Assembly (NCBI GenBank): GCA_948567375.1
Contig: OX419755.1
Coordinates: 71,614,944-71,678,943, forward strand
Direction: 5' to 3'
Source: Lunularia cruciata
Taxonomy: Eukaryota; Streptophyta; Marchantiopsida; Lunulariales; Lunulariaceae
Length of the DNA: 64,000 bases
Below are positions 1,962-34,048 of the stretch, piece after piece. Under the pieces are notes generated by a model, which had not been told where the DNA came from, did no database searches, and worked only from the letters and a program-made list of their open reading frames with translations. Each line of letters starts with the position of its first letter. Position 1 is the first letter of the stretch. The position numbers and the translations under genes were made by a program.

Positions 1962-2015
1962 TGTGTAAGGTCTAGATCTTGCTGCAAGGGCGTTCCTCTC
2001 CCTAGCATGAATCCC

Positions 2016-2780: not shown

Positions 2781-2841
2781 TTGCTATTCCATCCTTGGAG
2801 ATGATGTGCCCCAAAAGTAGACCTTCTTCACATCCAAAAAT

Positions 2842-9600: not shown

Positions 9601-12185
9601 GAGACCCCCAATAACATGATAATACTCCAACGGTTAAGTGACAAGCAAAAATACCCCAAGCTTATGTAACATTATAGAAAATCCACCACTCAATTTTCTC
9701 CCTCCTTTAACACAAGAGAAAATCCTTGAGCTTACAAGAACACAAAATAACGACCGGTTTCACCATAACATAAACCCTTGAGTTCACTAACATGAAAATT
9801 CACAGCAAATGGCACCAATACTATGTGTAGATTATTTTTCCTATGACAATGTAGTAATTGGCTGCAACACTAGGCCCTTGAGAGCAGTAGTGTCATGCCC
9901 CCAACCACTAGAGGTTCCAACCTCTGTGTGAAAAACTCCCTCCACTCTAGCTGCAAGCTCCACATGTTGTCGTGTTGCGGTTTGCATAGCCCGAAAAAAA
10001 GCGACTTATCAATTTTATCTCCACATTATTGAGGTAGGTTGTCTGCTAGATCCAATGGATAAGATGCTACCATGTGAGAAATGTATGTATCATGATTGAG
10101 GGCTCTAATGAATAAAGATGAGGTCAAGTGGAGAGACGAGGGTGTGTTTTAGTCGAGGAGTCTCGAGGGGGAGGAGGACGCGGGGAGTTAGAGTTGTAGC
10201 AGTGCACGAGTGGTAGAACATCATAGGAAGCATTTGAGCATGAGATGTCCCATGCTCCCAATCTGCCATTCTCAAATCCTTTTCTCATCAAGCTTCAGAT
10301 TTTGCACTATGATGGCTTATGGGACTAGTTGGTGGCATCTTTTGGGGTAGTATTTGTGGAGTCGATGATGGGAAACCCGGATCCTATTGTCCTTTTGGTG
10401 CTTACTTATGAGTATGTCTAGGACTTGAAAATATATGTGTTTCTATAGTTGAGGAATGCCTAAATTTTTTCTCATAAGCTTCAAGGTGGAATTGTGTGGT
10501 CCATTTGTCAAAAAGTAAAAAGATTGAAGGACAAATGTGCAAGAGATTGGGTCCCAAGAGGGAAGTCTGGCGTTTTTTGACCATCAAAGGAGTTCAAGGA
10601 GGCCATTTGGAGAACAAAGGACATGGTTGGATCAAGGAACTGATAGGATAAAATTTGGAGATAGAAATCATACAATTTGAGTTGATATTGGAGAGTGATA
10701 TGATCAATTGAATCAAGGGGGTAAAACTCATACCCAAGAGCACAAAGTAGGCAATTGAGAGAGCTTCTTAAGACATTTTCACTATCTATCAGTGGGATTG
10801 TGGAGAAGACAAAGTGCTTACAGTATTGAGCACAAGACATTTCAGTTTTGGATCAATCTCAAATCAGATCTGGTTGATTGAAGTTGAAGCTCTTGAGGTG
10901 TAAGGTGATGGAGAAGAGCTAGTGATCAGGTTTGGAGTTTTGATCACTCCCCAAGTTGTGGTCTGATATACCTAATGAAAATTTTCAGTCTTGTTATTGG
11001 TTAGGGTGTGCACCTTTGTGTGAATGTTTCATGTGAATTTTTCAAATAGAGAATTCAAGGTCTTGGATCAAGTATACTTGGGTCTGCAAAGCTCACAAGT
11101 TAGCCCAACTCAGGAATTGATCCATATCTAGGGATTGGGGTTGGATTAGGCCATCAAAATTTATAGTGTTAACCAAGAGCACAAAAAAATACTGTGGAAA
11201 ATTTAGTTGGCTCTAGTCTTATAGAGAGTGAGATCTGATGCAACGAGTTTTATTGAAAAGACTATCATAAGCTCGAAGGAGCATTTCTTTCTTCAATCCT
11301 AATTGAATGTCAATTCTCTCATTTTTGTAACTATGATTGAGAGTTCAGATTTCTAGAGTGTCTTGTGAGGATCAATTGTACATCTGATTTAGAAATCAAG
11401 GGAAAGTTGGCAAGAACCAGGGGCAAAACCTAAGGGGATTTTGAAACTAGGGTGAGAGTTGCAAAAACCTGTCCAACTTTGAGAGCTTGTTAGGGGAGTT
11501 TTAGTTCTCTGATTGAGGTCTCTCTTATATCATTGGAGGTTTAATTGAGTTATATCCTATATCTTATAGGCTTTCCATTGAATCCTAGACCACTTGAATC
11601 TAAGCTATACAAAAAGAGTTATGTTCATATGAGCTGCCCAAAGTTTTCCCCATCAAGAAGACATGGAAAATCTCCACATGGAGTACAAATTTTTTGAGAT
11701 AAGAAGTACAGCTTGGAGGAGACTTGGATTATAGGTTGAAATTAGCCTGATGACAGGGTACAAAGTCTATGAAGCTCTTTTTTGACAAAAAGCACAAAGA
11801 GTTGTTGCCGCATTCCTATGATTGGATCCTCTTTGTGCTTGCATGCTTGTTTGTACGCCCAATTGGTTTGGATTGGTGTGTGGGCATTGCGCTTAGGTTA
11901 TTTCCTTCTAGGAGTGTTTTGTATTACTCCTTGGTAATGTTGGAGGTGATGACTAGTAGACAAAGAGTATGTGTTTTGATGACAGATTAGGTTGCCCGTC
12001 ACTACCCTTCCCAATAGCAAAAATACTAATTATGAGAGAGGAGGGTTAGGTAACACGTGTGTTCAGATGATTAGTTACGAGTTTACCTATAGCCTCTAAT
12101 CTATAGTCTCCATAGCTTGGCACCTTGTGTGTTCCCAAAGAGAGAAAAGAAAAGTACGACAACGTCCTCTAGCTACATCTCAAGT
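9601..12185. other. Unassigned intergenic stretch
   Basis: Low-complexity-free sequence of 2.6 kb. It has LTR-like phrasing in places (for example tgtcatgcccccaacc near 9893), but no second copy in the window and no recognisable protein domain on either strand. It may be a further decayed retroelement leader or LTR. Nothing firm can be said. Confidence 0.4.
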
Positions 12186-12385
12186 GGACCAAGGATGTAA
12201 TCCAAGTAGCCCATGCTCACCTAGATCGACTCCAAGTAGACCACTCTCCCTAGTAGCTACTAGTTGTGTCCCAAGAATACCATGTCCACTTGGTCGAGTG
12301 CCCCTAGCATGTGCTTGAATCATCTTGATAAGCATAGGGCTCACAAGTGTCCAAGTGGTGATGCCTATCAAGCGCATCCTACGCT

Positions 12386-15300
12386 TGTGACAACCCGGCA
12401 AATATCACTTTTGCGGTAATCAAGTAAGTAAAGTTCATTCCCGCAAAGATATGATTCAGAATTGGTCAAATATGAAGCAAAGTAACAATCTTCAGTTCTT
12501 CTTGGTTGCGTCTTTAATCTCTTAGGTAGAAACCACACCCAGAAGAGAGTAACAAGCACTGACTCGTAGTCTTGTCACAAAAATTTGTCACACTTAATCA
12601 CAACTCCATCAAATTTTTCCAAACAATCTTGATTGTGATGATTTAGGCTCTCCCAAAAATGGCACTTCATTGCAAAACGACTTTGCCTCAGAATTGTGTT
12701 CCACCCCTCCACTGAAGGCACAACTTCCTTGATCAAAATTGCTTCACATCAACTTTGCATTGCACTCACAAATGCAAAATACTACCAACACTACAATTCC
12801 TCTTAGATCTGTCAAGGCATTGCTCCAATTGCACTTCACTCAGGATCAAACACATAGAAGAAGATCAAGGCTACGGAATCCAACATCCAATGAACACACT
12901 GATTTGCACTTTGAAATTCTCCCAACACTCACAAACACAAACACAAAGTTGATGCTCAGAATCAAGCTCAAGCAACGAGCATTGAAATCAACACTTCACT
13001 TTATCTATTCTTAGAAATTATGAGCACTAAAAAACATAAGACTACAAATGCCACTCTTAAATAGTGAAGCAAATGACAATTACTAACAACTATACCATTT
13101 CCTAACAACTCTTCTAACCTACAGATCTGAAATGACAATGCAACTCTTCATATTTGCCTCTTCAAATCTCAAAACTGTTACCAATCCGATCCAATGTCTA
13201 CTTCTTCTTTGGCTTTCAATCCTGAAGTAACTTCACTCACTACTACTCTATCCTTGGGTTTCATAACTCTTAACTCCTCTACTAATTCTAACATTTCTCT
13301 TTCCTGATCTACAATTCCACCAATGGGTAATCCTTCTAAGTCTCTATCTCCCGACCCACTCTTCTCTAACATCTCCGATGGTAACTCCAAAGACATCTGC
13401 ACTCTTATGTTATCTACTTTGGGTTTTGCTCTTACATCCTTTTGAAGTTCATCTATCTCTAATTTCACTAAGTCTAATCTAATTGTGATATTATCTTCTA
13501 CTTCCAATATCTTTCTATTTACACAAGCTCTGAGACTGATAAATAAAGCATTCAAATCTTTATCCTTCACATTTCTCCTCCTTGTCTCTTGCACCAACAA
13601 CTTCAACTCATGCAATCTTGTTTCTTCAATTCACATGCTGGCTTCTATACTCAGCATTGCATATCATTTTGATCACTATCTCCTTCAATGCCTCCAATCT
13701 CATTCTTCTCTCTCGTTCTTGATCTGCAAGCCAATCTTCTCTGTACATTTCCAATTCTGCTTTGAACTCAGCTTTCATAGTCTCCTTCTCCTTCTCCTTC
13801 TCCTTCTGCAAAATCTTCTCCTCCTGATTGCGAAGTAACTCTCTCAACCTTTCTTCTTCTCTATATCTCACTGTCAACTCTCTTTGCTAGAGCTGCTTCT
13901 TCTCTTCTACGCTCTCCATCACTCTATCGAGCTCTTGCTCTTTCTCTGCAACTCTTGCCATAGCATGGATAATTTCTAATCTTGAATCAGCAAACTGTTG
14001 CTTCAAGATTTGATACTCAGCCACTTGCCTTTCCCTCGCTATGTCACTCTATTCTATGAGTCCCTCTCTATTCCTTGCTTCTCTCTTCAAGTTCTTGATC
14101 ACTTGATTCTGTACTATTGTGTCTACTTGTAGTACTTCCCTTTCCTCCTCACCTCGAGTTATACTCTTCTTTAACTCTGAGGTCTCTTCTTCCAACCAAG
14201 CTAACACTTGCAATACAGTCTTCACCTTCGGACACTTTGACTACATCTCGTTCTTCTTGTGCTCTAACTTCACCAACAATGGGCACACAACCTCTTGCAG
14301 ATACTCTACTCCTTCCCTCACATTCATTTTGACTTGTGGACTTATCTCCTTCTTCACCTCTTCCTCACTCAACACTCATCTTCTAAGTCACAATTTCCTT
14401 ATAAGGATGGATTCTTTGCTCCCCAAACTTCCATCTTTCTCTTCTCTTACCTTACTTGGCCTTGCTCCACACTTTGCCTTTTGTTTGGAACAAACTCCTC
14501 TTTGAATTGTAACTCCTGCTCTGGAACTTTATCTTCCAATTTTGAGTTACTTTTCTCCTCTGTCTCCATCTTGGCTTCCTCCTCTTTGGGTACCAATTTC
14601 ATCTCCACTCCATCATCGCTGTCACTACTCGTGTCTCCACTCTGCAGCGTGAACTCAGGTTATTCCTCCCTCTCTAAGTCTTTGGACTTGCACTTGGCTT
14701 CTCCTTCCGACTCTTCTTCCGACGATGCTACTACCACCAGCTATTTCCTTGGGTTTACCCTTCTAGCCTTCCAAGGTCTTGCTTTCTCTACTTCTTCTTC
14801 TCCTTGTTGACTCCTCTTCTTTGACTTTGGAGTGCTCACTTCTAATTGCACACTCTACCCCGTCTACGCATAGACTCATCACTGCTCTTGATTTGAAGAA
14901 TGTATTGCTGCTCCTCCGTATCGACATCTTTTCTTAAGTTGGGATGGAAATGGGACACCATCTTATTTTTCTTTGCCGCATTGAGCAAGTTCAGCCCTAG
15001 ATAGAAATGGGCTGCAAATGGCACAATGTAATGTGGAGGCGACTTGTCCCGCAAATTCCACACCATCTGTCTTGTCCTCCCATGAAGACACTTCGCCTAG
15101 TTAATTGGCTCTCTTGCAAACATCTTATGGAAGAACACTGCTTGGTGCTTCATCACATAAGTTGTTCTCTCCGGCTTCAAGATTGCCATTAGAGCACTCA
15201 CAATCCCTCTCTTGATAGGATCCTTATAGCTCTCCACTTTGTAGCCATTCTTTGTGCGCTTCAAAGAGAAGGCATCTCTCACTTCTTGGGTTTCTTTGGC

Positions 15301-16144
15301 TACTTCTCCCTTCCCCAAGAACATGGCACCATGCTCTGCGCCTGCTTCTCTCCCAAGTACTAACCTCTAATCCGACTCTGTCCATTGAGCCAGATTTCCT
15401 CTCTTCCTTTCTTCCTCAGAGCCATCGAGACACTTACTCTCGATGATCTCAATCATGAAACTTGGAAAGCTAACATTCCAATTCCATGCCAAGAATGTGA
15501 TCTAAAGCTTGCTCAAGACCTCAATTCTTGCGATCACATCTAACCTCCAAATTGCATGATTCTCACTGCAAATTTGGAGTTCTTCTTCCCACCTCCCATC
15601 TTTCTCTCTTCCACTCTGGGCTGAGGACTATTCTTCCTACTGATTCCCAAATTAACTCTCTCAACTTCCTCTCGACACACCAGTGCATCTGTGACTACAC
15701 TTCTCTTCCCCTGATCTCTTGCATGACAACTTCTTTTCATCGCTTTGTCTTTAGCCCAATTTCTACAGAGTCACGCCTTCTCCGTCTTTCTTCAATTTGA
15801 GTTTCTACCAAGAAACCACACCTCCTGCATGCTCTTGTCCCTATCAAGTGTCCTTCATGCGTATGACCGCCATTTTTGAATGGTACCTTCTTGAATGTCT
15901 AGCCCCAAAGTTGTTATACTGTCCTAACCTCAGGTTGAGCACCCCCATACAAAGACTCCTTACTTCAGGTTGTATGCTAACAAGGCAATTCCGAGTACCT
16001 TGCTTTATGACCCAAAGTCACATTACCTTGGGTTACATCCCAAGGACACTTTTTTTTGCCTTCTTTGGCCATATATGCGCAATTCAACTTCTTTGTACAC
16101 TTCTTCTTCAAAATTGAGAAAAAAACTAAAATGTGGGTACCACA
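12386..16144 (-). mobile_element. 3.76-kb TG...CA mobile unit, copy A
   Basis: A sister of copy B (23555-27311), 3759 bp against 3757 bp, with the same terminal sequences: plus-strand TGTGACAACCC at the left and TGTGGGTACCACA at the right. It is flanked by imperfect 5-bp duplications, acgct and atgct. The matching site without the insert is visible in X2 at about 28870-28885. No terminal repeats, direct or inverted beyond about 4 bp, are seen. The coding direction is minus. TG/CA ends with 5-bp duplication fit integrase-type insertion, so it may be a giant solo LTR or a non-autonomous unit. It is treated as a fossil. Confidence 0.75.
13178..15740 (-). pseudogene. Coiled-coil protein region of unit A
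   Basis: Read leftward, the region opens with a block ending MGGGKKNSKFA near 15590. A conserved globular block follows (15324-14842), with MKHQAVFFHK and HYIVPFAAHFYLGLNLLN. Next is an acidic Ser/Glu-rich linker, and then Glu/Lys/Arg-rich coiled-coil stretches (13877-13178), such as REDWLADQERERR and RLDLVKLEIDELQKD. The same blocks occur in order in copy B. The globular block reminds me of the 'putative plant transposon protein' gag-like family; this is recollection, not a search result. No RT, integrase or transposase motif is visible. The copy is decayed. Confidence 0.5.
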
Positions 16145-16148
16145 ATGC

Positions 16149-17180
16149 TGCTCTACCAAACCAAGGCTCACAATCCAGGTCAAACAATTCAGGTCCATAG
16201 CCTGACCTAACACCTAATGCATGGATGCCTTTGACATTGCTAGGATAGCGGTAATATCGGTGCAAAAACCCATTTCTTGCTCTCTCTCTCTCTCTCTCTC
16301 TCATCGGCGTTGTGCTCTACCAACTGTTGTAATTGTGAGTCCCAAACAAGTCCAAGTCCTGCCTCTCAAAAAGCATGAGAGCATTGGAAACTCATGAGTG
16401 TAGGAAATGTAGCTCTAGGCTATTCAACTAGGTTCACCACTACCATAGGTGACCTATCAGCCACTACCACCATTTGAGACTAACGCCCAACATCCAAGAT
16501 ATCATCAACAAGGATGTGGTCAAGTCATTGAATTCCATTATAAGAACACTATAAAACCTCTCTGGGTAAGGGATTCATCCACCAAAAACAAAGATGATGA
16601 GCCCATGATCCCACTCTAGTTGCATCCAACAATATAGCAGGTCCCATCCAAGGATGGACCTGATGTGTACTCGCCACCACTCAAGTGCAAGAATCACCCA
16701 TCAAAGGAATGTTCTCCACAAGGTAAGTTGGAGAAATGGACTGATGGACCTAGAGATGTCATAGTATCCGTAATGTCTCCCAAAACACACCAGAACAAGG
16801 ATCCTAAAAACCCAAACCTTGGTTAGCACGTATATGTCCCTGACATGGCCATTCAAAAATCACCAAGTGAATATACCCATGTCTCTCTAGATCATGCACC
16901 CCCAATAAGGAAATATCTACTACTAGGGCCTTTTGGTAACCTCTGATTGTTGACATTGGTAATAACTCCGGATACCGATAGGCCAAGTGTGCCACATGAT
17001 GTAGAGAGACTTGCCTAGCAGTCTCATTTCTCTCCACATACAAGTACCTTTGTACTTGTATACCTGTTGTAATATCGCAGCTAGTCCGGTGCTAATCCCA
17101 CCAAACAACTTCAATAGATATATCTCCTCTAGTGGATACTGCCAAGCAATGAGTGTGGTATCCAAAGGTGTCAAAGTAAT
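16149..17180 (-). pseudogene. X1 cytosine-5 DNA methyltransferase domain
   Basis: Read leftward from about 17125, the motifs of a C5-methyltransferase appear in the correct order. Motif I is LKLFGGISTGLAA (about 17085-17120). Motif II is YVERNETARQ (about 17020-17043). Then comes DISLLGVHDLERHG, followed by motif IV with the catalytic PCQ, WPCQGH (16834-16851). Motif VI is VENIP (16705-16719). A motif VIII-like block with a WW pair lies near 16575-16605. Motif X is LGQAMDLNCLTWIV (about 16165-16214). This enzyme class transfers a methyl group from AdoMet to carbon 5 of cytosine. It sits downstream of gag and protease in X, so it belongs to the retroelement and is not a host DNMT gene. It is part of a broken element. 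Confidence 0.8.
16276..16302. repeat. (CT)n microsatellite
   Basis: About 13 CT units inside the C-terminal part of the X1 methyltransferase region. X2 has a much shorter run at the matching place near 28998. Confidence 0.8.
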
Positions 17181-17699
17181 AGACTCTAGAGGCTCATTCT
17201 CACACTCATTTTTGGATGGTATGAAGGCTCCACTCCAAGCCACACCAACCAATCTACATGTTGTTGCAATGCCTCTTCCAAACTCCACAATAGAACATCT
17301 AAGGTGGATGGAAAAATCTCACTCTTACTCCAAATCCAAGTGATCTCCTCTGGTACTAGAGTATCCTCTACATGGGTGTTCCCCTCCAACAAATCACTAG
17401 GCCAAGCAATTGCACCACTGAAAGCTAAAACTGATGTTGTTATGGTCCCAGACTGTAGTGAGCCAAGACTACCACTACTCAAGCGTACTGGTAGGCAACA
17501 TACTCATCTCTCACCAGACTGCCAACTTGGTGTATAGGAAGTTGTCTCCTCCCAATAAACAATGCTGAAATCCATGGGGTATAACATTGCTCTCCCAACT
17601 AGCACATCATATGACTCAACTATTGTTCCAATAGCCTGAGCTCTCACCACCAAGCTATCAGTCGGATGACCAAACTAAACTTGGACAACAAGCTCCCCA

Positions 17700-17880
17700 C
17701 GTGTGATGTATTATGTCAAACCATCACCTAGAGATGTTTGGATCTGAAATGGACACCTCTCCACACCAGTCTTCCATAACTCCAAACCAACTACTACAGC
17801 CTTCCCCAACATAAGGGGCTACGCACTAGAGTCTAAGAAGACTCTCTGTGATGTATAGACCTTCCTTGAAGGTCCCACCA
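17700..17880 (-). pseudogene. X1 aspartic protease block
   Basis: Minus-strand reading shows RVFLDSSA followed by PLMLGKAVVVGLEL. This matches the layout of retroelement aspartic proteases, whose LDSGA-type triad is followed by a PLMLG/PVMIG block in related plant elements. It lies between gag and the methyltransferase. The stretch 17186-17700 between it and motif I shows no recognised domain. Confidence 0.55.
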
Positions 17881-18583
17881 AATGGAGAATCCCCCTCTGG
17901 TTATCCAATAGGGAAACACCAAGTATGAACCGTGCTCTCTCAAAGGCTGGTCTAGCTGGCAAGTCCTCCAGTCTACCCGCTATTGCCTACCAGAAACCAT
18001 TGGTCGCTGAATGGATCCCATGCTTCTCAACCAAGTCAGCTACACTATCAACCACCTCTGCTCTAGTAGTAAGAACCGCATCATCCCTACTCTCACAAAG
18101 CGTGGCAGCCAACCGGAACACTAGGGCTTGGTCAGCTCTCAATGTAAACATGTCATTGGCTGAAAGGAAAGAGCACCGCATAATCAGATGAGCCGCCCCC
18201 AACATCATGCTAGACTTAGTTTGTATAGTAGCAGGTGGCTGACTAGTTGGTAGTCCATCATGCACTCCATCACCACCTACCACATCTGCACTGGGACGTC
18301 TAGGAGCCATGGATATCATGTACAATGCCTCAGATAGTGTGAAAGACCGGGGAAGTCTAACTTATCTCCCAACCTCTCTTCTCTATGAGTCCAACTCCAC
18401 TAATGCTCCTCTAGGCTCTGGAGCATGTACTGCACTCCTAGTCACTACTACAAATGCATCCACTTGTGCTGCTGTGCACATGAAATCCAAAACATCTTTA
18501 TCACCAATATATGAGGTGGAAGCCTCAACACCCGAATCGGATCTCCTCTGAGCAATGGCCATACTAGCCAATCTTTGCTCCAA

Positions 18584-19998
18584 CTACTCAATCCGAGTAG
18601 CCATAGCTATATCAAAAGTAAGGGCAAGTACTACACCTCTACTATGTGTAGATCCTCTACCACCTTGTCCTCCATGAATTGGAGCTCCTCTACTATTTGC
18701 TATAGTAGCCCTACCACTCCGTAACTTTGGGTGTAGGTCAAAGCATTGGTCACTAGTGTGACCAAATCTGTGGCAATGCTCACACTGCCTTTGTGTTGGA
18801 TGTGATGCAATAGAGGTATTAGGTCCATTGCCTTGAGTACACTCTCTCCTATGGTTAGGTCCACCACAAGTCCAACAAGCAACACTACCACTCATTGGTT
18901 CCTATTGACCCAAAAATGAAGGTAAGGGTCTAACTACAATAGGCCTTCCGCTCGTTCCATAGGATCTGGGTTGTCCACCCTATCCTCAAAAACCAACTGA
19001 GTGTGGTGCACTAGGCTGCACTCTAGAAGAAGTAACAACTGTAGATGAGGTCTCCCTACCAAATCTAGATGTCACCACTCTTTCCTCCACCATATTGGGC
19101 TCAATATGCTCAGCCAGACCAAAGACCATTGTCAAAGTGAGCATAGCCTATAACAACGTAACTTCACAAACTCTACGTCGTAACTCGTGTCCAATATCCT
19201 ATTCCAAAATTGGACTGCCTAGGCCTCGGTAACTCCCTAAGTGAAGCTGATCAGCTGCCTCATGGGAGTGTATGCCTTGCGTAGGCCCTCTCTAGCCTTC
19301 CATTGGAACTCCTACAAGCTCCTCAACTTGTCAATCCGCACTCTTTGGTAGTTTTGCCTCAAACACTAGAAGAACTCCATCATGGGGTTAAACCCCAATA
19401 CCACACTACCTCTTGCAGCAGTACCTCCACTTGTGGTAGCACTATCTCCAACTAGTATACCTCCAATAGCTCCACCAACACTACTTGAGCTAGAACTTGT
19501 AGGTACAGCCGATCTTCTCATGGCAACCAAGCCTGAAGTGATGGAGACATAGTTTGGAGACCAATATTGTCTCCATAACTCAATCTCCTCCAAATGAGCT
19601 CTCTTGAACTCATGGTAGTCTTCCATCAATAGACCCTCCAAATGCTGAAACAACCTCTTCCATGCCATGAAGTGTGTAAACAAAGTCAAGTTCCGTATCT
19701 ATTGGGTTTAGAACACCAACTATCAAACTCCTAGATGAAGTCATCCAACTCAATGGTACCCATTGTACCAGAGTAACGCCTAGGGCCTTTGGAGGCCACA
19801 TAAATCTTGTCCATATCCCACAACAATGGTGCGGACATGCCAATTGCACTCTCAACTGAATCAACTCCTATGTCAAACTCCAACTCAGAGTCAATCTCCT
19901 TCCTCATTAGGACTTGAGATACATGTTGATATCAAGCACCATTTTGAGCAAATCCACTATGTACTACAGAGCTATCTCCTCTAGAATCTCCAAAGAAC
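18584..19998 (-). pseudogene. X1 gag with two zinc knuckles
   Basis: Begins near 19998 on the minus strand (MEFFGDSRGD). A gag-like helical region follows (MTLFTHFMAWKRLFQHLEG, about 19689). Two CX2CX4HX4C knuckles then lie between 18895 and 18730: CWTCGGPNHRREC and CEHCHRFGHTSDQC. Two knuckles in tandem are common in plant gag proteins. X2 carries the same layout at 31074-32690. Fossil. Confidence 0.7.
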
Positions 19999-20426
19999 TC
20001 CATTGTGATAAAGTAACCGCAAATTGCAACAGCAAGTACCCCACTAAGTGCCAACACCACTAAGTACCAACACCAACCAAACACCACCAAGTGCCAAAAC
20101 TAATGGAACCCTATCCACTAATGTAACTCTAACTGAGATAACTATACTAGGGGCAAGGGCGATCTGTAACCTGCCATCACAACATGCATTCTCAGGGTCT
20201 ACAGGTCATCACTTCTTGCTTCACCGGAGAGAAACAAATATAGTCGGATTGGTCATCACTCTAGCCTCACTATCAAGAGCACCAACGTTCAAAATTTAGG
20301 GCACCTCACAAACACAATGCACAAACAAGAAGTATTGAATGGAGAGGGTCCAATCACAAGAATGCTAAACAAAAACCCTTCATCTCATAAATCAACATGG
20401 GACTAACTCTGCCACCATTTGGCATT

Positions 20427-21425
20427 TGATATAATTGGAGTACCTATCTACTTCTTGAGCTATGAGGATCACCGAGGATTGGATCAAAGTTCTTCTCACC
20501 AAAATCTGATCGGATCAAAATTCTTCTCACCAAAATCCGCATAAACCCTTCACAAAGTCTGACGTAAAATCTGACATAAATCTAATATAAATCTGACATA
20601 AAATCTGATGTAAAATTTGACGTAAATCCCTAAAAATGGTTGATAGTCAAATCCTCTACTAACTCTTCACTCAAGCCAGATTGGAAAAATAGGTTTTGTC
20701 CAATCTCTAATTTGTGAGGATGTGCTCTCAACTCCACTTTCAATTTTAGTTTTGGAGCTCAACTTGCAACAAATTGGTCCTGAGCTCAAAATTACAACTA
20801 CCACTTGAAAATTACTTCTCCCTAGCTCCAAATTTTGCCAATGCGTCTGCATACACTCTCTCTTAGGGAAATTTGAACTACTCGATCAAGACACCAAGAT
20901 CCACTAAGCTTGGAGATACCACCAACACTCGCAATTCTTGCACCTAATTTCCCCTTGACTCACTTCTTTGATGTAATTAGATTGTTTACAACTCAAATCA
21001 ATTAAACTCAGATCAATACTTGATCTGATCCTTAACAACTTGCTAACAACAGGATTGATTACAATCAAACCACACCCACTCTAGCTAAGAGAATCTATGT
21101 GACTTTTGCCGGCTTTCTGTCCACTATTGTCAGGAACTCGAAGGCTCAACATCAAAGAAGTGAGCTCTCTAGAGCTACACTTCTAGGGTATACTCCTGAT
21201 TTTGACCTAGGTCTCATCCCAATGTTCTTGTTGACGGCACACCTGACGGTACAGACGGTGCGGATGGTGCAAGTGACAATAGGCCCCGCCATGATGTCAA
21301 TACCCTAAACATAAAATCTGACCATCGGAAAGTAGCATATGAGTAACTGGCAAATGCCTCTAACTACTATCACTTGCACTCTAATGTCCAAGCAATCTAG
21401 ATGTGATGCTACAAATGGCGTGACA
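20427..21425 (-). repeat. 5' LTR of X1
   Basis: On the minus strand it runs from TGTCACGCC to ATATCA, 999 bp. The equivalent in X2 is 33113-34048, 936 bp, starting TGTCATGCTATTT. A primer-binding-like stretch, TGGTGGCAGAGTTAG (minus strand, 20403-20417), follows within 10 bp. It resembles the initiator-Met tRNA complement TGGTATCAGAGC. Assignment as an LTR rests on two copies, the TG...CA ends and the adjoining primer site, since no 3' LTR is present. Confidence 0.6.
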
Positions 21426-23554
21426 TCTACCCTCAAGTATGGTCCAAATGTTACCAAGGAAGAGAAAGTGAGATTTGAGGAGATTTTCCGCAAGTTCATC
21501 CATGTGGTTTCTTTCAATTACAAGGATCTAAAGAAAGTTACCTTGGAGGAGCACAAGATAGAGATGGAGTCACAGGCAAGACCAGTCTGCCAAAAGTAAC
21601 ACCACATTAGCCTCCCAATAGCTTTGGTTTTGAAGGAGGAGATTGATAAGCTCAAGGAGGCTAGATTTATCTTTGAGGTGGAGAATTCAGAATAGGTGTC
21701 TCCAATTGTCAATGTGAAGAAAAATAATGGCAAGCTTCAAGGTTGTGTGGATTCAAGAAGCTCAATGTTGTTACCAAGAAAGATACTACCCATTACCATT
21801 CATTGATGAGATCTTGTAAGAGGTTGCAAGTCATGAGATGTACAATTTTGGAGATGGTTATAGTGGATATAACCAAATCAAGATTTCATTAGAGCATCAA
21901 CAACTCACCACATTCACCATACCTTGGGGGACTTACACTTTCAAATTCATGCATTTTGGGCTTTGCAATGCTCCAACCATATTCCAATGGTTCATAAATA
22001 AAGTATTTGAACCTTTCATTGGGAAATTTATGAGACTTCATTGATGACTTTTGTGTCTATGGGAGCAAGGAGGAGCACTTTGAGCACTTGATCAAGGTCT
22101 TGCAATGCTTGGATAAAGCAAATGCATCACTCAACCTAAAGAAGTGAATTTTTGGATGTGAAGGAGGTCTACTTTCAGGGCACATCATTTCCAAGGATGG
22201 AATAGTAGTTGAACTTGAGAAGGTGAGGAAAATCTCAAACCTTTCCATTCCTTTCAAGCTTGACAAAGTTATGCCAATTCTTGGGGATGGTTGGGTACTA
22301 TAGGAGGTTCATCTTCTCATTTTCCAACAAGGCCTATGCATTGATCATCTACATGAAGAAGTGTGTAGATTACATGGTGATTTTGGAAGACAACAAGGCT
22401 CTCAAATCTTTTGAAGAGCTCAAGCAATCCCCTGTTGTAGCTCCAATTCTTGCTAAACCTGATTGGAGTAAGCCTTTCATCCTCTATATTGATGCTTCCA
22501 ATGTAGCTATAGGATGCACTCTTAGTCAATTAGACCAAGATGGGCATGATTATCCAATAGCTTATGCTAGTAGGCAAATGGTTTCAACAGAAAAGAACTA
22601 CTATGTTACAAAGAGATAAGGTTTGCCAATGATCTTTGATCTAAAGAGTTTTAGACACTATTTGATTGGAGGGAAAGCCACCATTGTCACAAATCACAAG
22701 GCTTTGAAGTACATCTTCAACAAGCCTAATATGGAAGGGAGGCTAGTAAGATGGATGATACTCTTGTCTGGGTATAACTACACCATTGAAGATAGGCCAA
22801 GAAAGAAACATGATAATTATTGATTTGTTATCTAGGACCTATGATCATGATGGAGATGAACTACTGAATGATTCCTTCTCGGATGAGGAGCTCATGACAA
22901 TCTCAGTCACTCAAGAGGTTCCAATGGAGTACAAGGAGATTGAGAACTTTGTTACAAGAGGTAACTATCCAAAATGAATGCATGCTAGGGAGAAGAAGGC
23001 CCTTGAAACAAGATCTTGACCTTACACAATGGTGGAAGATATTCTTTTTCACCAAGGAGCATATGGTCTACTTCAAAGAGTAGTGGGTAAGGAAGAGTCT
23101 ATCTTACTCATAAAGGAGTTTCATGAAGGGTTAGTGTGTGGAGTACACTTTGCAGGAAAGGTGATTGCTTTCAAGATTCTAGATGCAAGTTACCATTGGA
23201 GAAGGATTTTCTAGAATTGTCTTGAGTATTACAAAACTTGTCATGTTTTTCAAGCTTTTGCTAGAAAGTCTACTTCCACTCCACCACTTAGATCAATTCC
23301 ATTGCTAGGACTTTTTGAGAAGTAAGGAATTGACTTTGTAGGTCCTCTCAAGGAACAATAGGTACATTGTGGTAGTTACTACTTATCATACAAAGTGGAT
23401 TGAGGATAGACCATTGAGGAACAAGAATGAAGAGGAAGTTGGGAGATTTCTTTATGAACGCATTATCACTAGGTTTAGGTGCCCTTTGGAGTTGATTTCT
23501 AGTAGAGGAGGAGATTTTACAAGAAGCATCACTACAGCTATGCTATGACACTTT

Positions 23555-26500
23555 TGTGGTGCCCACATTTTTTTTTCCTCAAAATAAAGGAGAAGAAGTG
23601 TACAAAGAAGTCGAATTATGCCTGTATGGCCGAAGAAGGCAAAGGAAAGAGTCTTTGGGATGAAACCCAAAGTAAAATGACTTTGGGTCATAAGGTGAAG
23701 TATTCAGAAATGCCCTGTCAGCATACAACCCGAAGTAAATTGTCTTTGTATTGGGAGGAGCTCAACCCGAGGCGAAGACAGTCTAACAACCTTTTGTCAG
23801 GGCAAGAAATTCAAGAAGGGGCCGTTTATAAACTGGCGGCCCATACGCGCAAAGGTTTATTGATAGTGACAGGTGCATGCCGGAGGTGTGATTTCTTGGT
23901 AGAAACTCAAAGCGACAAAAGACAAAGAAGCGCAACTCTATAAAAATCGAAACTGCAACAACGAAATGTTGAGTAATTTTCCTTTGCCGTTGAGAAGTCG
24001 TCTTGCAGGTGATTGGGGAAAGGGAAATAGAGTTGGGATCGTGTTAGTGCGCAAGGGCGAAGTCACAAGAGTGAAATCAAGAGAAAGTGAGAAAGTAGAA
24101 GAGATGGGAGGAGGGAAGAAGAACTCCAAATTTGCAATGAGAAATCATGCGATTCGGAAGTTAGATGTGATAGCAAGGATCAAAGTCTTGAGCCGACTTT
24201 GGATCACCTTTCTGGCATGGAACTGGAACGTAAGTTTTCCAGGACTCATGATAGAAATCATCAAGAGTAAGTGTCTCGATGGACCCGAGGAAGAAGGGAA
24301 GAGAGGAAATCCGGCTCGCTGGACAAAGTCGGATTGGAGACTTGTACTCGGGAAGGAAGCAGGCTTGGAGCAGGGAGCCACGTTCTTGGGAAAGGGAGAG
24401 ATAGCACAGGAAACTTAGGAGGTGAGAGATGCCTTCTCGTCAAAATGGACAAAGAATGGGTACAAGGTTGAGAGCTACAAAGACCTTGTGAAGAGAGGGA
24501 TTGTGAGTGCTCTGATGGCCAAAGAGAATCACTTATGTGATGAAACACCAAGCGGTGTTCTTCCATAAGTTGTTTGCAGGAGAACCAATCAATTGGGCGA
24601 GGTGTTTTCATGGGAGAACAAGGCAGATGGTGTTGAATTTGCGGGATAAGTTGCCTCCACACTACATTGTGCCGTTTGCGGCACAATTCTACCTCGGGCT
24701 CAACTTGCTGAATTCGGCAGAGCGGACTAGGATGGTGTCGCACTTCCATCCAGATGTGCGAAAGGAGGTCAATATCGAGGAATAGCAGTACATTCTCTAA
24801 ATCAGGAGCACCGATGACTACTATGCAAAGACAGGGAAGAACATGGAGGTCGCAGTGAGTACCCCGACGAAGAAGAGGAGTCAGCAAGGAGAAGCCAAAG
24901 ATAGCAAGAAACCTCGGAAGATGCAGAGAAGTAACCCGAGGCGAAGTATGATGGTGATTGAGTCGGAGGATGAGGACTCAGAAGGAGATGCCGAGCTCAA
25001 AATGGAAGACTTGGAACACAAGGAGGAGCCTGAGCTAACGTTGCAAAGTGGAGATACAAGCAGCGATAGTGATGAAGTGGGAGAGATGACCTCGGCGCCA
25101 GCAGCTGACAAATACAAGGAGGAAGAAGTGCACACTGAGATGGAGGCCAAAGACAACACACAGTTGGAGGACAAAGTAACTGTGCTCGAGGAAAGGAAGA
25201 TTGCAGTACAGCAAGGAGTTCGCTCAAGATGTAAGGTGAAGTGTGAAGCGGGGCCAAGTAAAGTGAAGGAAGAGGTCAGAGAAAGCTTGGGCAGTGAGGC
25301 GTCAATTCCGATATGAAGACTGCAAAGGAGAAGGCGAGTATCGGGTAAAGAAGAGGTAAGGAAGGAGATTTCTATGCAGGAAGAAGTAGTTGCAAGAATG
25401 GAGTGGAGGACCTGCAGGAAATTGTGTGTCCATTGTTGGTGAGGTTGGAGCACAAGAAGAGGGAGATGCAGTTGACGTGTCCAGAGGTGAAGACTGTGTT
25501 GCAGGTGTTAGCGCGACTAGACGAAGAGAACTTGGAGTTGAAGAAGAGTGTAACCCGAGGTGAGGAGGAAAGGGAAGTATTGCAAGCGGAGGCAGTAGAG
25601 AGAAGTCAGGTAATTGAAGACCTGAAGAGAGAAGTGAGCTATTGAGAGGAGCTTGTGAAGAAGAGTGACATAGCAAGGGAGAGACAAGTAGCTGAATATG
25701 AGATCTTGAAGCAGCAATTTGTTGATTCAAGAGTAGAAGTTATTCATGCTATGGCAGCAGCGAAGGATCAAGAGCTTGATAGAGTGATGGAGAGTATGGA
25801 GGAGAAGAAACAACTCTAGCAACAAGAGTTGGCGGCACGATACAGAGAAGAAGACCGATTACAAGAGTTACTTTGTAATCAGGAGGAGGAGGCAGTACAC
25901 AAGGAGAAGGAGACGGTGAAAGCCAAATTCGAGGAGGAGTTGGCAATGTACAGAGAGGACTGGCTTGCAGATCGGGAACGAGAAAGGAAGACAAGATTGG
26001 AGCCGATAAAGGAGATTGTCCTCCAGATGAATGCAACGTTGAGTACAAAGGCTAGCGTTCAAATTGAAGAGATGAGATTGCACAAGTTGAAATTATTGGT
26101 GCAGGAGACAAGGCAGAGACAGGCAAAAGACACCAAGATGAATGCCTTGTTGATTAAATTGAGAACTCGTGTAGATAGGAAGATATTAGAGGTAGAAGAT
26201 AATATTGCAATTAGACTAGACTTAGTGAAAATAGAGATAGAAAAGCTTTGAAAAGATGTTGAAGCAAAACCCGAAGTAGATAACATAGGAGTGCAAATGT
26301 CTTCGGAGTTACCAATGGAGACATTAGAGAATAATGGGTTGGGAGATAAGAAGTTAGATAGATTACCCACTAGTGGAATTTCAGATCAGGAAAGAGAATT
26401 GTTGGATCTGGTAGAAGAAGTAGAAGATATGAAACCCGAGGAAAAAATGATAGGAAGTAAGATTACTTCGGGTTTGGGTTTGAAAGCCGAGGAAGAAGTA

Positions 26501-28680: not shown

Positions 28681-28876
28681 AACCAAGGGTGTAATCCAAG
28701 TAGCCCATGCTCACCTAGATGAACTCCAAGTAGATCAATCTCCTTAGTAGCTACAGGTTGTGTCCCAAGAATAACATGCTCACTTGGTCCATCGCTCCCA
28801 ACATGTGCTTAAATTGTCTTGAAAGGCACATAGCTCACAATTGTCCAAGTGGTAATGCTTATCAAGCGCATCTTAC

Positions 28877-29850
28877 ATTGCTCTGCCAAACCAAGGCTCA
28901 CAATCCATGTCAAACAATTTAGGTCCATACCTTGATCTAATACTTGATGCCTAGATGCCTCTGACACTATTAGAATAGCAATAATACATACTTGCTTTCT
29001 CTCTCTCTTATCAATGTTAGGCTCCACCAATTACTATAATTGTGAGTTCCAAACAAGTCTAAGACTTCCTTCTTGAAAGGCATGGGAGCTTAGGAAACTC
29101 ATAAGTGTGGGAAAAGTGGCTCTAGGCTGTCCAACTAGGTTCACCACTACCATAAGTGACCTATCAGCCACTACCACCATCTGAGATTAATGCCTAACAT
29201 CCAAGATGTCATCAACAATGATATGATCTAGTTGTTGAATCCCCTATAACCTCTTTGGGTAAGAGGTTTAGCTACCAAAGATGAAGATGATGAGCCCATG
29301 ATCCCACTCTCGCTGCATCTAACAACACGGTAGGTCCCATCCAAGAATGGACCTAATGCATACTCATCACCACCCAGGTGTGAGTATCACCCATCAAAGG
29401 GACGTTCTCCAAAAGGTAAGCTAGAGAAACGGATTGATGAACCTGGAGATGTCATAGTATTTGTAACATCTCCCAAAAAACACCAAAATAGAGATCATGA
29501 AGACCCAAACCTCAACCATCACGTGTATATCCCTAACATGGCCATCCAAAAATCACCAAATGAATAGGCCCATGTCTCTTCAGATCATATGCCCACAACA
29601 AGGAAATGTTTGTTGGTAGGGCCTTCTAGTAACCCTTGACTATTGACATTGGTAATAACTCAAGATACCAATAGGCCAAGTGTGCCACATGATGGAGAAA
29701 GACTCACATAGTAGTCTCATCTCTCTCTACATACAAGTACCTATGTATACTTGCCTATAGTACCGCAACTAGTCTAGTACTAATCCCATCAAACAACTCC
29801 AATAGACATACTCCCTCTACTAGATACTACCAAGCAATGAGTGTGGTATC
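28877..29850 (-). pseudogene. X2 cytosine-5 DNA methyltransferase region
   Basis: Collinear with the X1 methyltransferase. The motif X region (QGMDLNCLTWIVSLGLAEQ) lies near 28945-28885 on the minus strand, the motif IV and VI regions near 29530 and 29400, and the motif I region near 29760-29820. The copy is more decayed than X1 and is identified chiefly through alignment to it. Its value is as a second independent example that the methyltransferase is part of family X. Confidence 0.7.
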
Positions 29851-32800
29851 CAAAGGTGTCAAGGTAATTGACTTTGGAGGCTTATCTTCACAATGGTCAC
29901 GTAGTGGTACAAAGGCTCCACTCCAAGCTTGTTACACAAACTGATCTGCGTGCTATTGCAATGCTTCCTCTGAACTCCACAAAAGAACATCTAAGGTGGA
30001 TGGAACAATCCCACTTGTACTCCAAATCTGAGTGATCTCCTATGGTACCGAAGTATCCTCTGCATGGTTGTCCCCCTCCAACAAATCATCAAGCCAAGTA
30101 ATAGAACATTGAAAGATAAAATTGAAGTTGCCATTATCTTGGACTATAGTGAGCCAAGACTACCACAATTGAAGCGTACAGGTAAGCAACACACTTGTCC
30201 CTCACCAGACTGCCAACCTGGTCTATAGGAGGCTATCTCCTCCTAATAGACAATATCAAAACCCATGGGGTACAACACTACTCCTCCAATTAACACATCA
30301 TACGACTCAACTATGGTCGTAATGGCCTAAGCTCTCACCATAGAGCTATCAGTCTAATGACCAAGCTGAATCTAAACAACAAGCTCTCTACATGTGATGT
30401 ATAGTGTAGAACCATCACCTAGAGATGTCTGGATCTAAAATGGACACCTCTTCACATTGGTCTTCTGTAACTCTAGACCGACAACTATAGCCATCCCCAA
30501 TATAAGGGGTTGCGCACCAAAGTCAAGTAAGACCTTCTATGGTGTATAGATCTTCCTTGAAGGATCTATCAACCAAAAAATCCCCCTCTAGTTATCCAAC
30601 AGGACAATCCCAAGTGTAAATTGTGCTTTCTCAAAGGCCAATCTAGCTGGTAACTCCTCCAATCTAGCCATTGTTGCTTGCCATAAACCATTGGTTGCTG
30701 AGTGGATCCTATGCTCCTCGACCAAGTCAACTCCACTATCAACCACCTCTCATCTAGTTGTAAGAACCACATCATCCTTGTTGTCACAAAGTGTGGCAGC
30801 CAACCAAAACACTAGGGCTAGGTCAACTCCCAATGTATACATGTCATTGGCTGAGAATAACGGAAAGCACATAATAAGGTGAGCCACCTCCAACATCGTG
30901 CTAAACTTGATATGTGTAGTAGCAAGTGGCTAACTAGTAGGTAGTCCGTCATGCACCCCATCACCACCTACCACACCTGCACTAGGATGTCTAAGAGCCA
31001 TGGATCTTGTCTACATTGCCTCAGAGAGTGTGAAAGACTAGGGAAGTCTGACCTATCTACCAGCCTCTCCTCTCTATGGGTCCAACTCCAATGATGCTCC
31101 TCTAGGCTCTGGAGCACGTACTACACTCCTAGTCACTACGATAGATGCATCCACATGTGCTACTCCGCACATGAAATCCAAGGTGTCTCTATCATTAGCA
31201 TATGAGGTGCCAGCCTCAACACCTAAATTTGATCTCCTTTGAGCTATGGCCATGCTAGCCAATCTTTGCTCCAATTGCTCAATGCAAGTAACCATGGTTG
31301 TATCAAAAGTAAAGGCAAGTACTACACCTCTACTAGGTGTGGATCCTCTACCACTACCTTTGCCACCTCATCTTCCATGACCTGGAGCTCCTCTACCACT
31401 TGCCATAGTAGCTCCACCGCTTTGTAACTCTGGGTGTAGGTCAAAGCACCAATCACTAGTGTGATCAAATCTACAGCAATGCTCACATTGTCTTTGTGCT
31501 GACTGAGATCCACTATAGGTATCAGGTCTGCTGCCCTGAGTGCACTCTCTCTTGTAATGAGGTCCACCATAAGTCCAACAAGCAACACCACCACTCACTA
31601 GTTGTTGTTGATCCAAAAATGAAGGTAAGCGTCTAGCTGCACTAGGCCCCCACTTGCTCCATAGGACGTAGGCTATCCACCTTGTCCTCAAAAACCAACA
31701 TGGCATGATACACTCTACTGCACTCTAGAAGAAGTAACTATTGTGGATGAGGTCTCCCTACCAAATCCAAATGTCCCCACTCTTTCCTTCACCATGTTGA
31801 GCTCAATATACTCAACCAAACCAAAGACCACTGCCAAAGTAGGAGAAGTAGCATGTAACAGCATAGCATCCCAAACTCTATGCCGCAACTCCTTGTCCAA
31901 TATCCCATACCAAACTTGGACTGCTTGGGCCTCAATAACTCCCCAAGTAAAATTGATCAGTTGTCTCATGCAAATGTACGCCTCAAGTAGACTCTCTCTA
32001 GCCTTCCATTGGAACTCTTGCAAGATCCTCAGCTTGTCAATCCGCACTCCTTGATAGTTCTACCTCAAAAACTAGAAGAACTCCACCATGGGGTTAAACC
32101 CCGGTACTACACCACCTCTTGTAGTAGTACCTCCACTTGGAGTAGCACCATCTCCAAGAGATCCACCAACGCTACTAGAGCTACAACTCATGGGTACATC
32201 CAATCTACTCCTAAGAATTCAGCCTGAAATGATGGAGACACAGTTTGGAGACCAATATTGTCTCCATAGCTCAATCTCTTTCAAGTGAGCTCTCCTGAAC
32301 TCATGGTAGTCATCCATTGGCGGACCCTCCAAATGTTGAAACAACCCCTTCCATGCCATGAAAGGTGTGAACAAAGTTGGGTTCCGCTTTGCTATAGGTC
32401 ACACTAACTATCAAGCTCTTGAATGAAGTCATTTAACTCAATGGTACCTACTATACCAAAGTAGCACCTGGGACCTTTGGAAGCCCCATAAATCTCATCC
32501 ATGTCCCACAACAACAATGTGGACACAACAAGTGCACTCTCAACTTAATCAACTCTTGTGTCAAACTCCAACTTAGATTCACTCTCCTCCCTCATTTAAA
32601 CCTAAGATACATGCTAATATTGAGCGCCACTTTGAGTAAACCCATTTCATATAGTAGCGCTATCTTCTCTAGAATCCCCAAAGAACTCCGTTGTGACAAA
32701 GCAACCAAAAACTACAACCTACAATTGTAACCTCCGCAAGTACTCCACCAAGTGCCAACACCACCAAGTGCCAACACCTCCAATCGCAAACATCACCAAC

Positions 32801-33112: not shown

Positions 33113-34048
33113 TGAAATAACCAGAGTACCTATCTACTTCCTGAGCTACAAGGATCACCAAGAATGGGATCAAAGTTCTTCTTGCCAAAATCTTACATAA
33201 ACCCTTCACAAAATCTGACATAAATTTGACGTAAAATCTGACATAAATCCTTAAAAATAGCTGACCACCAAATCTTTCGCTAACTCTTCACTCAAGCCAA
33301 AATGGAAATATGGGGATCATCAAATCTCTCATTCACGTGAATGGGTTCCCAATTCTACCTTCAATTTCATTTTTTGAGCTTGCACCAAATTGGTCATATT
33401 TTCACTCTTGAGCTCAAAATCACAACTACTGCTTGGAATCAACTCTCTCTGGCTCCAAATTTGACCAGCACTTTTGCACACAATCACTCCCAAGGAAATC
33501 AAAATTGCAACCAAGGTACCACGATCCATGGAGCTTGGAGATACCACCACCACCCTTAGTTCTTGCACCCAATTTCCCCCTGACTCTCACTTCTTTATTG
33601 TAATCAGTTCGTTTACACAACTCAAATCACACTCAATCAAACCAATACTTGATCTGTCACTCAATAATCTGCCAACAACTAGGCACTGATTGTAGTCAAG
33701 CCACACCCACTCTAGCTAAGAGACTCCAAGTGACGCTCATCGGCTTTCTATCCACTCTAGCCAAGAACTCAAAGGCTCAACAACAAAGAAGTGAGCTCTT
33801 TGGAGTTGCACTTCCAAGGTATACTCTTGATTTCAACCTAGCTCTCACCCCAATGGTCCCATTGATGGCACACTTGACGGTGCAAACGGTGCAAGTGACG
33901 GTGGGTCCCACCATGTAGTTAGTACCCAAAACACAAAATCTGACCGTTTGAAAGTAGTCTATGAGTCACTGCCAAAATACCTCTAACTAATATCATTGCT
34001 ACTCCAGTGTCTTAGCAATCTAGATGCAAAGCTACAAATAGCATGACA
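33113..34048 (-). repeat. 5' LTR of X2
   Basis: Minus-strand TGTCATGCTATTTG to TTTCA, 936 bp, alignable with 20427-21425. Beyond 34048 the sequence no longer matches X1 flanks, which fixes the outer end. Confidence 0.6.

What the first reader, a model, noticed from the sequence alone, without database searches (positions are those of the whole stretch)
16149..17180. A cytosine-5 DNA methyltransferase carried by an LTR retroelement in a land plant
Seen directly: in minus orientation, motif I (LFGGISTGLAA), II (YVERNE), IV with PCQ (WPCQGH), VI (VENIP), a VIII-like block and X (LGQAMDLNCLTWIV) occur in canonical order within 1 kb. They lie downstream of a retroelement protease block and a gag with two zinc knuckles, inside a unit with an LTR. 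Known: retroelements that captured C5-methyltransferases are described from charophyte algae and dinoflagellates (from memory). A land-plant example would extend this, and could mean that an element methylates, and so hides or marks, its own copies.
Basis: partly seen in the sequence, partly recalled or inferred. Interest (0 to 1): 0.9.

Follow-up and report, generated by a model that had tools for sequence, protein, structure and literature searches.

The report
Plant jumping gene carrying DNA methyltransferase
The window holds two dead copies of a jumping gene that, in this and other moss- and liverwort-type plants, carries its own DNA-methylating enzyme, a combination described so far from algae and said in print to be missing from land plants.

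Summary
Confirmed and extended. Window 16145-17174 (-) is a decayed C5-methyltransferase (10 stops, two frame changes) of DNMT3 type, motifs in unrearranged order, in a dead retroelement copy (W1); a second dead copy (W2) lies at 28.7-34.0 kb. Young relatives in the same 566 Mb genome are open: gag-protease-MTase in one ORF (1428 aa in two fetched copies), a conserved TAG-CAG stop, then RT-RNaseH-integrase-PHD finger. End junctions number about 1,300-2,300 genome-wide. The ends are split direct repeats (A1...B1-A2-B2) with 4-bp target duplications, not ordinary LTRs. Related proteins occur in Marchantia, Riccia, Calypogeia, Sphagnum and the alga Closterium. The retroelement MTases form one clade (100/100) apart from the host's own DNMT3; uniting the bryophyte elements with host DNMT3 is rejected (p-AU 1.8e-6). 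So this is an old inheritance, not a local capture. It is the kind known from Klebsormidium (KnitGypsy-Dnmt3), here in a non-flowering plant at high copy, with the enzyme on the Gag side of a probable readthrough stop. Enzyme activity and self-methylation of cDNA are inferred. Old copies decay by C>T at CG and CHG much like a gypsy without MTase, so I see no sign of escape from host methylation.

The parts
16145..17174 (-). Decayed DNMT3-type C5-methyltransferase domain of element copy W1 (motifs I to X), pseudogene
   Evidence: tblastn to open copy L009 ORF1 residues 985-1323; PF00145 and DNMT3A matches of the open copy
17498..17890 (-). Retroelement protease remnant (W1)
   Evidence: aligned to L009 ORF1 residues 740-870 by tblastn; protease by motif, no Pfam hit in this family
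18743..18877 (-). Two CCHC zinc knuckles of gag (W1)
   Evidence: ORF 18584-18901, weak zf-CCHC match E 0.26
18938..20054 (-). gag remnant (W1)
   Evidence: tblastn to L009 ORF1 residues 19-390; L009 ORF1 has only a weak Retrotrans_gag match, E 0.07
20985..21425 (-). A1 terminal repeat arm of W1; element start TGTCAC at 21425
   Evidence: blastn to the A repeat
12162..12392 (-). Tail of the W1 ORF1 after the MTase, cut off by an insertion
   Evidence: tblastn ORF1 residues 1320-1396
9868..9978 (-). Last piece of W1 ORF1; RT and integrase are missing beyond
   Evidence: tblastn ORF1 residues 1392-1428
12386..16146 (.). 3.76 kb insertion of another transposable element into W1
   Evidence: break in homology with 3-bp overlap; second copy at 23554-27311
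9963..12161 (.). 2.2 kb insertion into W1
   Evidence: break in homology
28683..32796 (-). Second dead copy (W2): gag-protease-MTase ORF remnant
   Evidence: tblastn ORF1 residues 1-1387 in pieces
28812..29862 (-). Decayed MTase domain of W2
   Evidence: tblastn with the MTase domain, 9 and 3 stops in two pieces
33618..34048 (-). A1 terminal repeat arm of W2
   Evidence: blastn to the A repeat

Best explanation
The finding is a dead copy of a large, recently active family of integrase-type (Ty3/Gypsy-related) retroelements that carry a DNMT3-type C5-methyltransferase inherited within the element lineage since before the liverwort and moss elements split. Shown: the unit gag-PR-MTase / TAG stop / RT-RNaseH-IN-PHD, split direct repeats with 4-bp duplications, and conserved catalytic residues. 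Less certain: selective constraint on the enzyme, because the copies were sampled by protein similarity or open frame. Inferred mechanism: the MTase is made with every Gag-PR precursor, because it lies before a leaky stop. It enters the particle and methylates the element's own cDNA, so that insertions arrive pre-methylated. Host CG and CHG maintenance then keeps them methylated, while the integrase-linked PHD finger steers insertion to suitable chromatin.
For: Open ORFs and domain order. DNMT3A best PDB match. 113 of 113 scored MTase matches full length at 96-100% identity, 69 of 113 without stops by my count of the listing. RT matches equally fresh, 150 of 150 scored at 97% or more. Split repeats in five fetched elements (one with a shortened A1), 4-bp duplications in 4 of 5; genome-wide, 46 of 89 A1 junctions have an A2-B2 junction 8-11.5 kb downstream, 0 of 89 in the opposite-strand control. 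TAG-CAG at the ORF1/ORF2 border in 38 of 38 loci (37 separate copies). pN/pS of the MTase 0.26-0.39. Retroelement MTase clade 100/100; union of bryophyte elements with host DNMT3 rejected, p 1.8e-6. Catalytic Cys kept in 67 of 69 rows with a letter there. The self-methylation model follows de Mendoza 2018, which reports de novo CG activity of retrotransposon DNMTs (PMC5890265, abstract and discussion read).
Against: No activity, expression or methylome data. Old copies decay by C>T at CG and CHG at rates like those of a neighbouring gypsy family without MTase, so no element-specific mark is visible in integrated DNA. The selection estimates are biased: the 30 copies were the best protein matches, the five loci were picked for long open frames; singleton variants give 0.50 and gag gives 1.59 on few changes. 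The readthrough motif CARYYA is recalled, not looked up. No structure model: every structure prediction found the queue full.
Confidence: 0.55

Rival explanations
1. Recent local capture: the element picked up the host's own DNMT3 (or DRM) gene as a processed copy.
For: The host has a DNMT3 and a DRM, and the retroelement MTase is of the DNMT3 type.
Against: 75 retroelement MTases form one clade (100/100) apart from host DNMT3, DNMT3A, DNMT3C and DRM. Holding eight bryophyte-type element rows together with host DNMT3 costs 50 log units, p-AU 1.8e-6 (the first tree had been seen before this group was named, but the rival itself comes from the finding). Host DNMT3 has DUF3444 and, by its split frames, introns; the element MTase has neither.
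Confidence: 0.03
2. The MTase acts on something other than the element's cDNA: element RNA, rival elements or host DNA, as a weapon or a regulator of host silencing.
For: Open enzyme in many copies. Position on the Gag side suggests a high dose. De Mendoza 2018 discusses RNA methylation for the LINE-type enzyme.
Against: Arrangement with Gag and protease favours action inside the particle; nothing here tests the substrate.
Confidence: 0.2
3. Passenger: the MTase was useful once and is now carried along without function.
For: 15 of the 70 retroelement rows with a letter there have Glu instead of Pro before the catalytic Cys. Singleton variants give N/S 0.50 per site.
Against: Shared variants among 22 stop-free copies are 15 synonymous to 6 non-synonymous (copies picked by protein similarity). 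Identity to the Marchantia model P0121 is 69% in the MTase against 64% in gag and 63% in PR. Catalytic Cys kept in 67 of 69.
Confidence: 0.12
4. Ordinary LTR retrotransposon, the split repeats being an artefact of recombination or nesting.
For: Of five elements one is nested in another copy, one has a shortened A1 and one lacks a matching duplication.
Against: 4 of 5 elements have 4-bp duplications exactly at the outer ends of A1...B1-A2-B2. 1,998 A1|internal, 1,283 B1|A2 and 2,310 A2|B2 junctions genome-wide, 0 in reversed-pattern controls; pairing at a spacing near 9.3 kb in 46 of 89.
Confidence: 0.05

Closest known systems
KnitGypsy-Dnmt3 of the charophyte alga Klebsormidium nitens (de Mendoza et al. 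2018, PMC5890265)
   Same: Gypsy-type pol, intronless unrearranged Dnmt3-type MTase in the element, repeat structure described as like DIRS, purifying selection on the MTase (passages read)
   Different: Here in a non-flowering plant and its bryophyte kin; about 1,300-2,300 end junctions (the paper speaks of fewer copies in K. nitens than in Symbiodinium); MTase placed with gag-PR before a TAG stop (the paper says within the Pol ORF; its figure was not seen); a PHD finger on the integrase (the word PHD is absent from the paper's main text). K. nitens sequences were not recovered, so homology could not be tested.
PAT/DIRS-group retrotransposons with split direct repeats A1-B1-A2-B2 (definition: PMC4157794, passages read)
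   Same: Same repeat arrangement
   Different: Those use a tyrosine recombinase; this element has a DDE integrase and 4-bp target duplications in 4 of 5 elements
SymbioDIRS-Dnmt3 of Symbiodinium (PMC5890265)
   Same: Dnmt3-type MTase in a retroelement
   Different: DIRS pol with tyrosine recombinase; the authors regard the two captures as independent
Unnamed 'architecture B' elements (P0143-P0157, P0159-P0162, P0164; ENA, JGI and other records)
   Same: Homologous MTase, RT and integrase and, in many, a PHD finger
   Different: MTase sits between RNase H and integrase instead of between protease and RT
Plant host DNMT3 (MTD + DUF3444; PMC6453930, passages read)
   Same: DNMT3-type MTase with motifs in unrearranged order
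   Different: DUF3444 and split frames (introns) in the host gene; separate clade

Membership tests
DNMT3-bearing Gypsy retroelements (KnitGypsy-Dnmt3 kind) | Gypsy-type pol: RT, RNase H and DDE integrase | tested here: met
   PF00078, PF17917, PF17921, PF00665 in L009 ORF2
DNMT3-bearing Gypsy retroelements (KnitGypsy-Dnmt3 kind) | Unrearranged, intronless DNMT3-type MTase in the element | tested here: met
   PF00145 in a 1428-aa open ORF; DNMT3A best in the PDB
DNMT3-bearing Gypsy retroelements (KnitGypsy-Dnmt3 kind) | Repeat structure like DIRS elements | tested here: met
   A1...B1-A2-B2; whether K. nitens has the split or the inverted form was not seen
DNMT3-bearing Gypsy retroelements (KnitGypsy-Dnmt3 kind) | MTase inside the Pol ORF | tested here: inconclusive
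   Here it is in the gag-PR ORF, before a conserved TAG; the K. nitens figure was not seen
DNMT3-bearing Gypsy retroelements (KnitGypsy-Dnmt3 kind) | MTase in one clade with K. nitens element MTases | not testable with these tools
   No K. nitens protein among the listed hits of three searches
Canonical LTR retrotransposon | Identical full-length LTRs at both ends | tested here: not met
   The 5' end has A only, the 3' end has B-A-B in the elements fetched
DIRS/PAT tyrosine-recombinase retrotransposons | Tyrosine recombinase (the absence of a target duplication in these is recalled) | tested here: not met
   Integrase rve domain, no recombinase in the Pfam listing; 4-bp duplications in 4 of 5 elements
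Host plant DNMT3 | DUF3444, introns and DNMT3 clade | tested here: not met
Plant DRM | Rearranged motif order (VI-X before I-V) | tested here: not met
   Motif order I-X in the element; the host DRM (L017) is rearranged
Chromovirus | Chromodomain at the integrase C-terminus | tested here: not met
   PHD finger instead (PF00628 E 6.3e-11), no chromodomain in the Pfam listing up to E 1

The most novel reading that the evidence does not exclude
DNMT3-carrying retroelements are not a curiosity of two algae but an old, inherited lineage of streptophytes that still makes thousands of insertions in bryophytes. These elements make the enzyme at Gag dose by stop-codon readthrough control, so that their cDNA is methylated before an integrase with a histone-reading PHD finger inserts it. 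A land-plant parasite would thus write the host's silencing mark on itself before it arrives.
Probability: 0.33. Interest if true: 0.87.

Novelty: new variant of a known kind. Interest (0 to 1): 0.73.

Why it matters
[quoted passage not shown] The elements here, and unannotated proteins of Marchantia, Riccia, Calypogeia and Sphagnum, contradict the statement for bryophytes. They also question the view that the charophyte capture was private to the Klebsormidium lineage: a Closterium element and bryophyte elements lie in one retroelement MTase clade. Marchantia is a tractable model, so whether a retroelement pre-methylates its own cDNA becomes directly testable. Counts of bryophyte DNMT3 'genes' may also need these elements removed.

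Tried and rejected
Local capture from host DNMT3 or DRM: rejected by tree and AU test. Ordinary LTR element: not borne out by end structure. A methylation footprint special to this family: looked for, not found; the neighbouring gypsy without MTase decays alike (that control is polarised by a single reference copy). A first selection run had some copies in the wrong orientation and is superseded. Looking for Klebsormidium with a four-protein alignment: 20 hits, none named Klebsormidium. Viral-contig scan: seven loci, matches of 34-40% identity over about 40-70 residues on IMG/VR records, dropped without further study. Naming the host: genome size (566 Mb) and gypsy burst resemble the published Lunularia cruciata (580 Mb, PMC9985172, passages read), but this is a guess. 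A LEAFY search to place the host did not complete. A structure model of the MTase could not be run. REM1 of Chlamydomonas (PMC1291216) is not held. The RT tree (27 rows) left out Closterium and Marchantia P0127 because of its span filter. The MTase tree kept 74 of 170 proteins that matched the profile, by a coverage and length rule, plus the own row and four host/PDB rows; its bootstrap had not fully settled. The 32-row repeat was a hand-thinned set without DRM and five long or poorly filled rows.

Full report
OBSERVATION. The domain is broken: three matched pieces in three frames with 0, 9 and 1 stops. On their own the pieces give no Pfam hit. They are 69-79% identical, piece by piece, to an open MTase in the same genome (L009), which passes Pfam's cut-off for PF00145 (31.2 bits against 22) and has DNMT3A as its best PDB sequence match (E 1e-11; of 54 sequences listed up to E 10, the first 29 by rank are DNMT3A, 3B or 3C). 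Window copy W1 keeps A1, gag, protease and MTase, is split by two insertions and has lost RT and integrase. A second dead copy, W2, lies at 28683-34048. Weak points of the annotation: the gag match to Pfam is below cut-off (E 0.07), and the protease is called from its motif and from alignment, without a Pfam hit in this family.

THE LIVING FAMILY. Of ten stretches fetched, picked mostly for long open frames, L009-L015 and L018 carry the element and L016, L017 are host genes. Five copies (L009-L013) have one open frame of 937-1428 aa ending with the MTase; RT-RNase H-integrase with a C-terminal PHD finger is open over 966 aa (L009) and 1037 aa (L013). A protein search of the genome scored 113 of 14,109 candidates: all 113 cover the whole MTase query (one of them 360 of 361 residues) at 96-100% identity, and 69 of 113 have no stop by my count of the listing. 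An RT query scored 150 of 40,747, all at 97% or more. Only the best candidates are scored, so these are lower bounds. Junction patterns with up to one mismatch occur 1,998 (A1|internal), 1,283 (B1|A2) and 2,310 (A2|B2) times; reversed-pattern controls gave 0. At 9.6-9.9 kb each, 1,300 full copies would be roughly 2% of the genome (my estimate; many copies may be partial).

ENDS. Five elements were fetched with flanks. They read A1 (about 450 bp), internal part, B1 (107 bp), A2, B2; in L011 only 77 bp of A1 remain, and L014 sits in another copy whose end is tandemly duplicated. The outer ends are TGTC and GACA, and 4 of 5 have a 4-bp target duplication (CATA, TCTT, TAGC, ACTC); the fifth, L013, has none. 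The B1|A2 junction reads GACA-GC-TGTC, a palindrome of the two outer ends with two extra bases, in 4 of 5 and decayed in the fifth. This is the split direct repeat plan of PAT elements (PMC4157794, passages), but with a DDE integrase. On contig C1, 46 of 89 exact A1 junctions have an exact A2|B2 junction 8-11.5 kb downstream on the same strand, mostly 9.26-9.39 kb, and 0 of 89 on the opposite strand; 26 of 89 have an exact B1|A2 junction downstream, and 28 of 41 B1|A2 junctions have an A2|B2 junction 420-470 bases on. My inference: the B-A junction is what a circular intermediate would show, and integrase trims two bases.

THE STOP BETWEEN MTase AND RT. In 38 of 38 loci examined (37 separate copies, L009 and L029 being one) ORF1 ends with TAG followed by CAG, with RT-side sequence following in the same frame; 37 of 38 fit TAG-CARYYA. 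That this is the leaky-stop context of tobacco mosaic virus is recalled, not looked up. Two Marchantia gene models (P0121, P0123) and two unnamed ones (P0132, P0134) also end soon after the MTase, while four other gene models (P0124, P0127, P0129 of Marchantia, P0141 of Sphagnum) run on into RT and two further proteins (P0169, Closterium P0163) hold both in one frame. So the stop is not universal in relatives. If readthrough is the rule here, the MTase is made at Gag dose and RT-IN at low dose.

RELATIVES. Two MTase searches gave 158 (120 listed) and 46 proteins. Named sources include Marchantia polymorpha, M. paleacea, Riccia sorocarpa, Calypogeia fissa, Sphagnum troendelagicum, S. tenellum, S. 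jensenii, S. fallax and the alga Closterium; one is labelled a Candidatus Obscuribacterales assembly (P0023), probably a stray plant contig; the rest are unnamed ENA, JGI, NCBI and other records, probably mostly environmental. Two architectures exist: MTase between protease and RT (bryophytes, Closterium and some unnamed records), and MTase between RNase H and integrase (unnamed records only). In three Marchantia models (P0121, P0123, P0124) MTase identity is 66-69%, gag core 62-65%, protease 62-63%; RT is 68-79% in three Marchantia models.

TREES. In 79 rows, all 75 retroelement MTases form one clade at 100/100 against host DNMT3, DNMT3A, DNMT3C and host DRM; 25 rows that hold the window's family and every named bryophyte row form a clade at 100/100. 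The Closterium and host rows have long branches and the bootstrap had not fully settled. In a hand-thinned 32-row repeat without DRM the same split is 100/100, and forcing eight bryophyte-type rows together with host DNMT3 is rejected (log-likelihood 50.1 lower, p-AU 1.8e-6). The RT tree (27 rows, 7 of 24 inner branches well supported) groups this family with Marchantia P0135 and with P0169 (94/93) apart from the second architecture (89/95). So the MTase has most likely travelled with the element, and its place in the element changed at least once, or it was taken up twice from related elements.

SELECTION. Thirty copies give pN/pS 0.26, 22 stop-free ones 0.27. Shared variants are 15 synonymous and 6 non-synonymous, singletons 35 and 53 (0.50 per site). 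Five loci picked for long open frames give 0.39 for the MTase, 0.44 for the protease region and 1.59 for gag (three copies, few changes). All these sets were chosen by similarity or open frame, which lowers the ratio. Motif residues are largely kept: catalytic Cys in 67 of 69 rows with a letter at that column.

DECAY. At sites where at least four of the five young copies have a letter and all those agree, W1 shows C>T at 61 of 201 CG, 132 of 435 CHG and 114 of 1,420 CHH sites; W2 shows 85 of 205, 160 of 445 and 139 of 1,495. Copies of a gypsy without MTase in the same window, polarised by one reference copy, decay alike: w21997 5 of 16, 22 of 58, 41 of 587; w27314 7 of 16, 6 of 24, 52 of 518; two less diverged copies show less (w76 3 of 32, 11 of 83, 32 of 1,107; w7184 1 of 10, 2 of 10, 7 of 252). 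Integrated copies have thus, by this footprint, been methylated at CG and CHG like their neighbours. This speaks against escape from host methylation and does not test methylation of cDNA.

HOST. The genome has a DNMT3 gene in several frames (introns, inferred) with DUF3444 (E 4.6e-8) and a rearranged DRM. DNMT3 with DUF3444 is reported for non-flowering streptophytes and was not found in flowering plants (PMC6453930, passages). DRM is reported as restricted to streptophytes (PMC12344493, passages). The element's closest named kin are liverworts and mosses. A bryophyte is most likely; a streptophyte alga or another non-flowering plant is not strictly excluded.

LITERATURE. Nine searches of the open library showed no report of MTase-bearing retroelements in a land plant in the listings and passages seen. 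The nearest is de Mendoza 2018 (abstract, discussion and passages read). PMC12344493 (passages) mentions DNMT3s in retrotransposons of streptophytes by citing that paper. PMC6338049 (one section part and passages) says land plants lack them. Subscription papers and preprints are not covered, and figures and supplements were not seen.

Noticed in passing
window 12386-16146 and 23554-27311: Two copies, about 80% identical, of another transposable element; three of its ORF pieces had no Pfam match. One copy sits inside the dead MTase element W1, the other between two pieces of a gypsy.
   Followed up: partly
window 76-2996, 7184-7870, 21997-23554, 27314-28680: Copies of a gypsy family without MTase, very poor in CG and CHG (observed/expected 0.13 and 0.42 in the copy at L012), while the one young MTase element measured (L009) has CHG at 1.1-1.2.
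   Followed up: partly
P0144, P0161 (unnamed relatives), C-terminal 200-400 aa: After the PHD finger these proteins carry a further region with a DPW-like motif that resembles, by eye only, an adenine or N4-cytosine methyltransferase; Pfam finds nothing there.
   Followed up: no
P0163 and other relatives: Motif IV reads E-C-Q instead of P-C-Q in Closterium; 15 of the 70 retroelement MTase rows with a letter at that column have Glu before the catalytic Cys.
   Followed up: no
L026 / G000 C6:23476041-23477541: A 750 bp tandem duplication of an element terminus (x-B-A-B unit), where one element copy is inserted in the 3' end of another copy of the same family.
   Followed up: partly
G000: A2|B2 junctions outnumber B1|A2 junctions (2,310 against 1,283), which may mean solo A-B ends or faster decay of the B1|A2 palindrome.
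   Followed up: no
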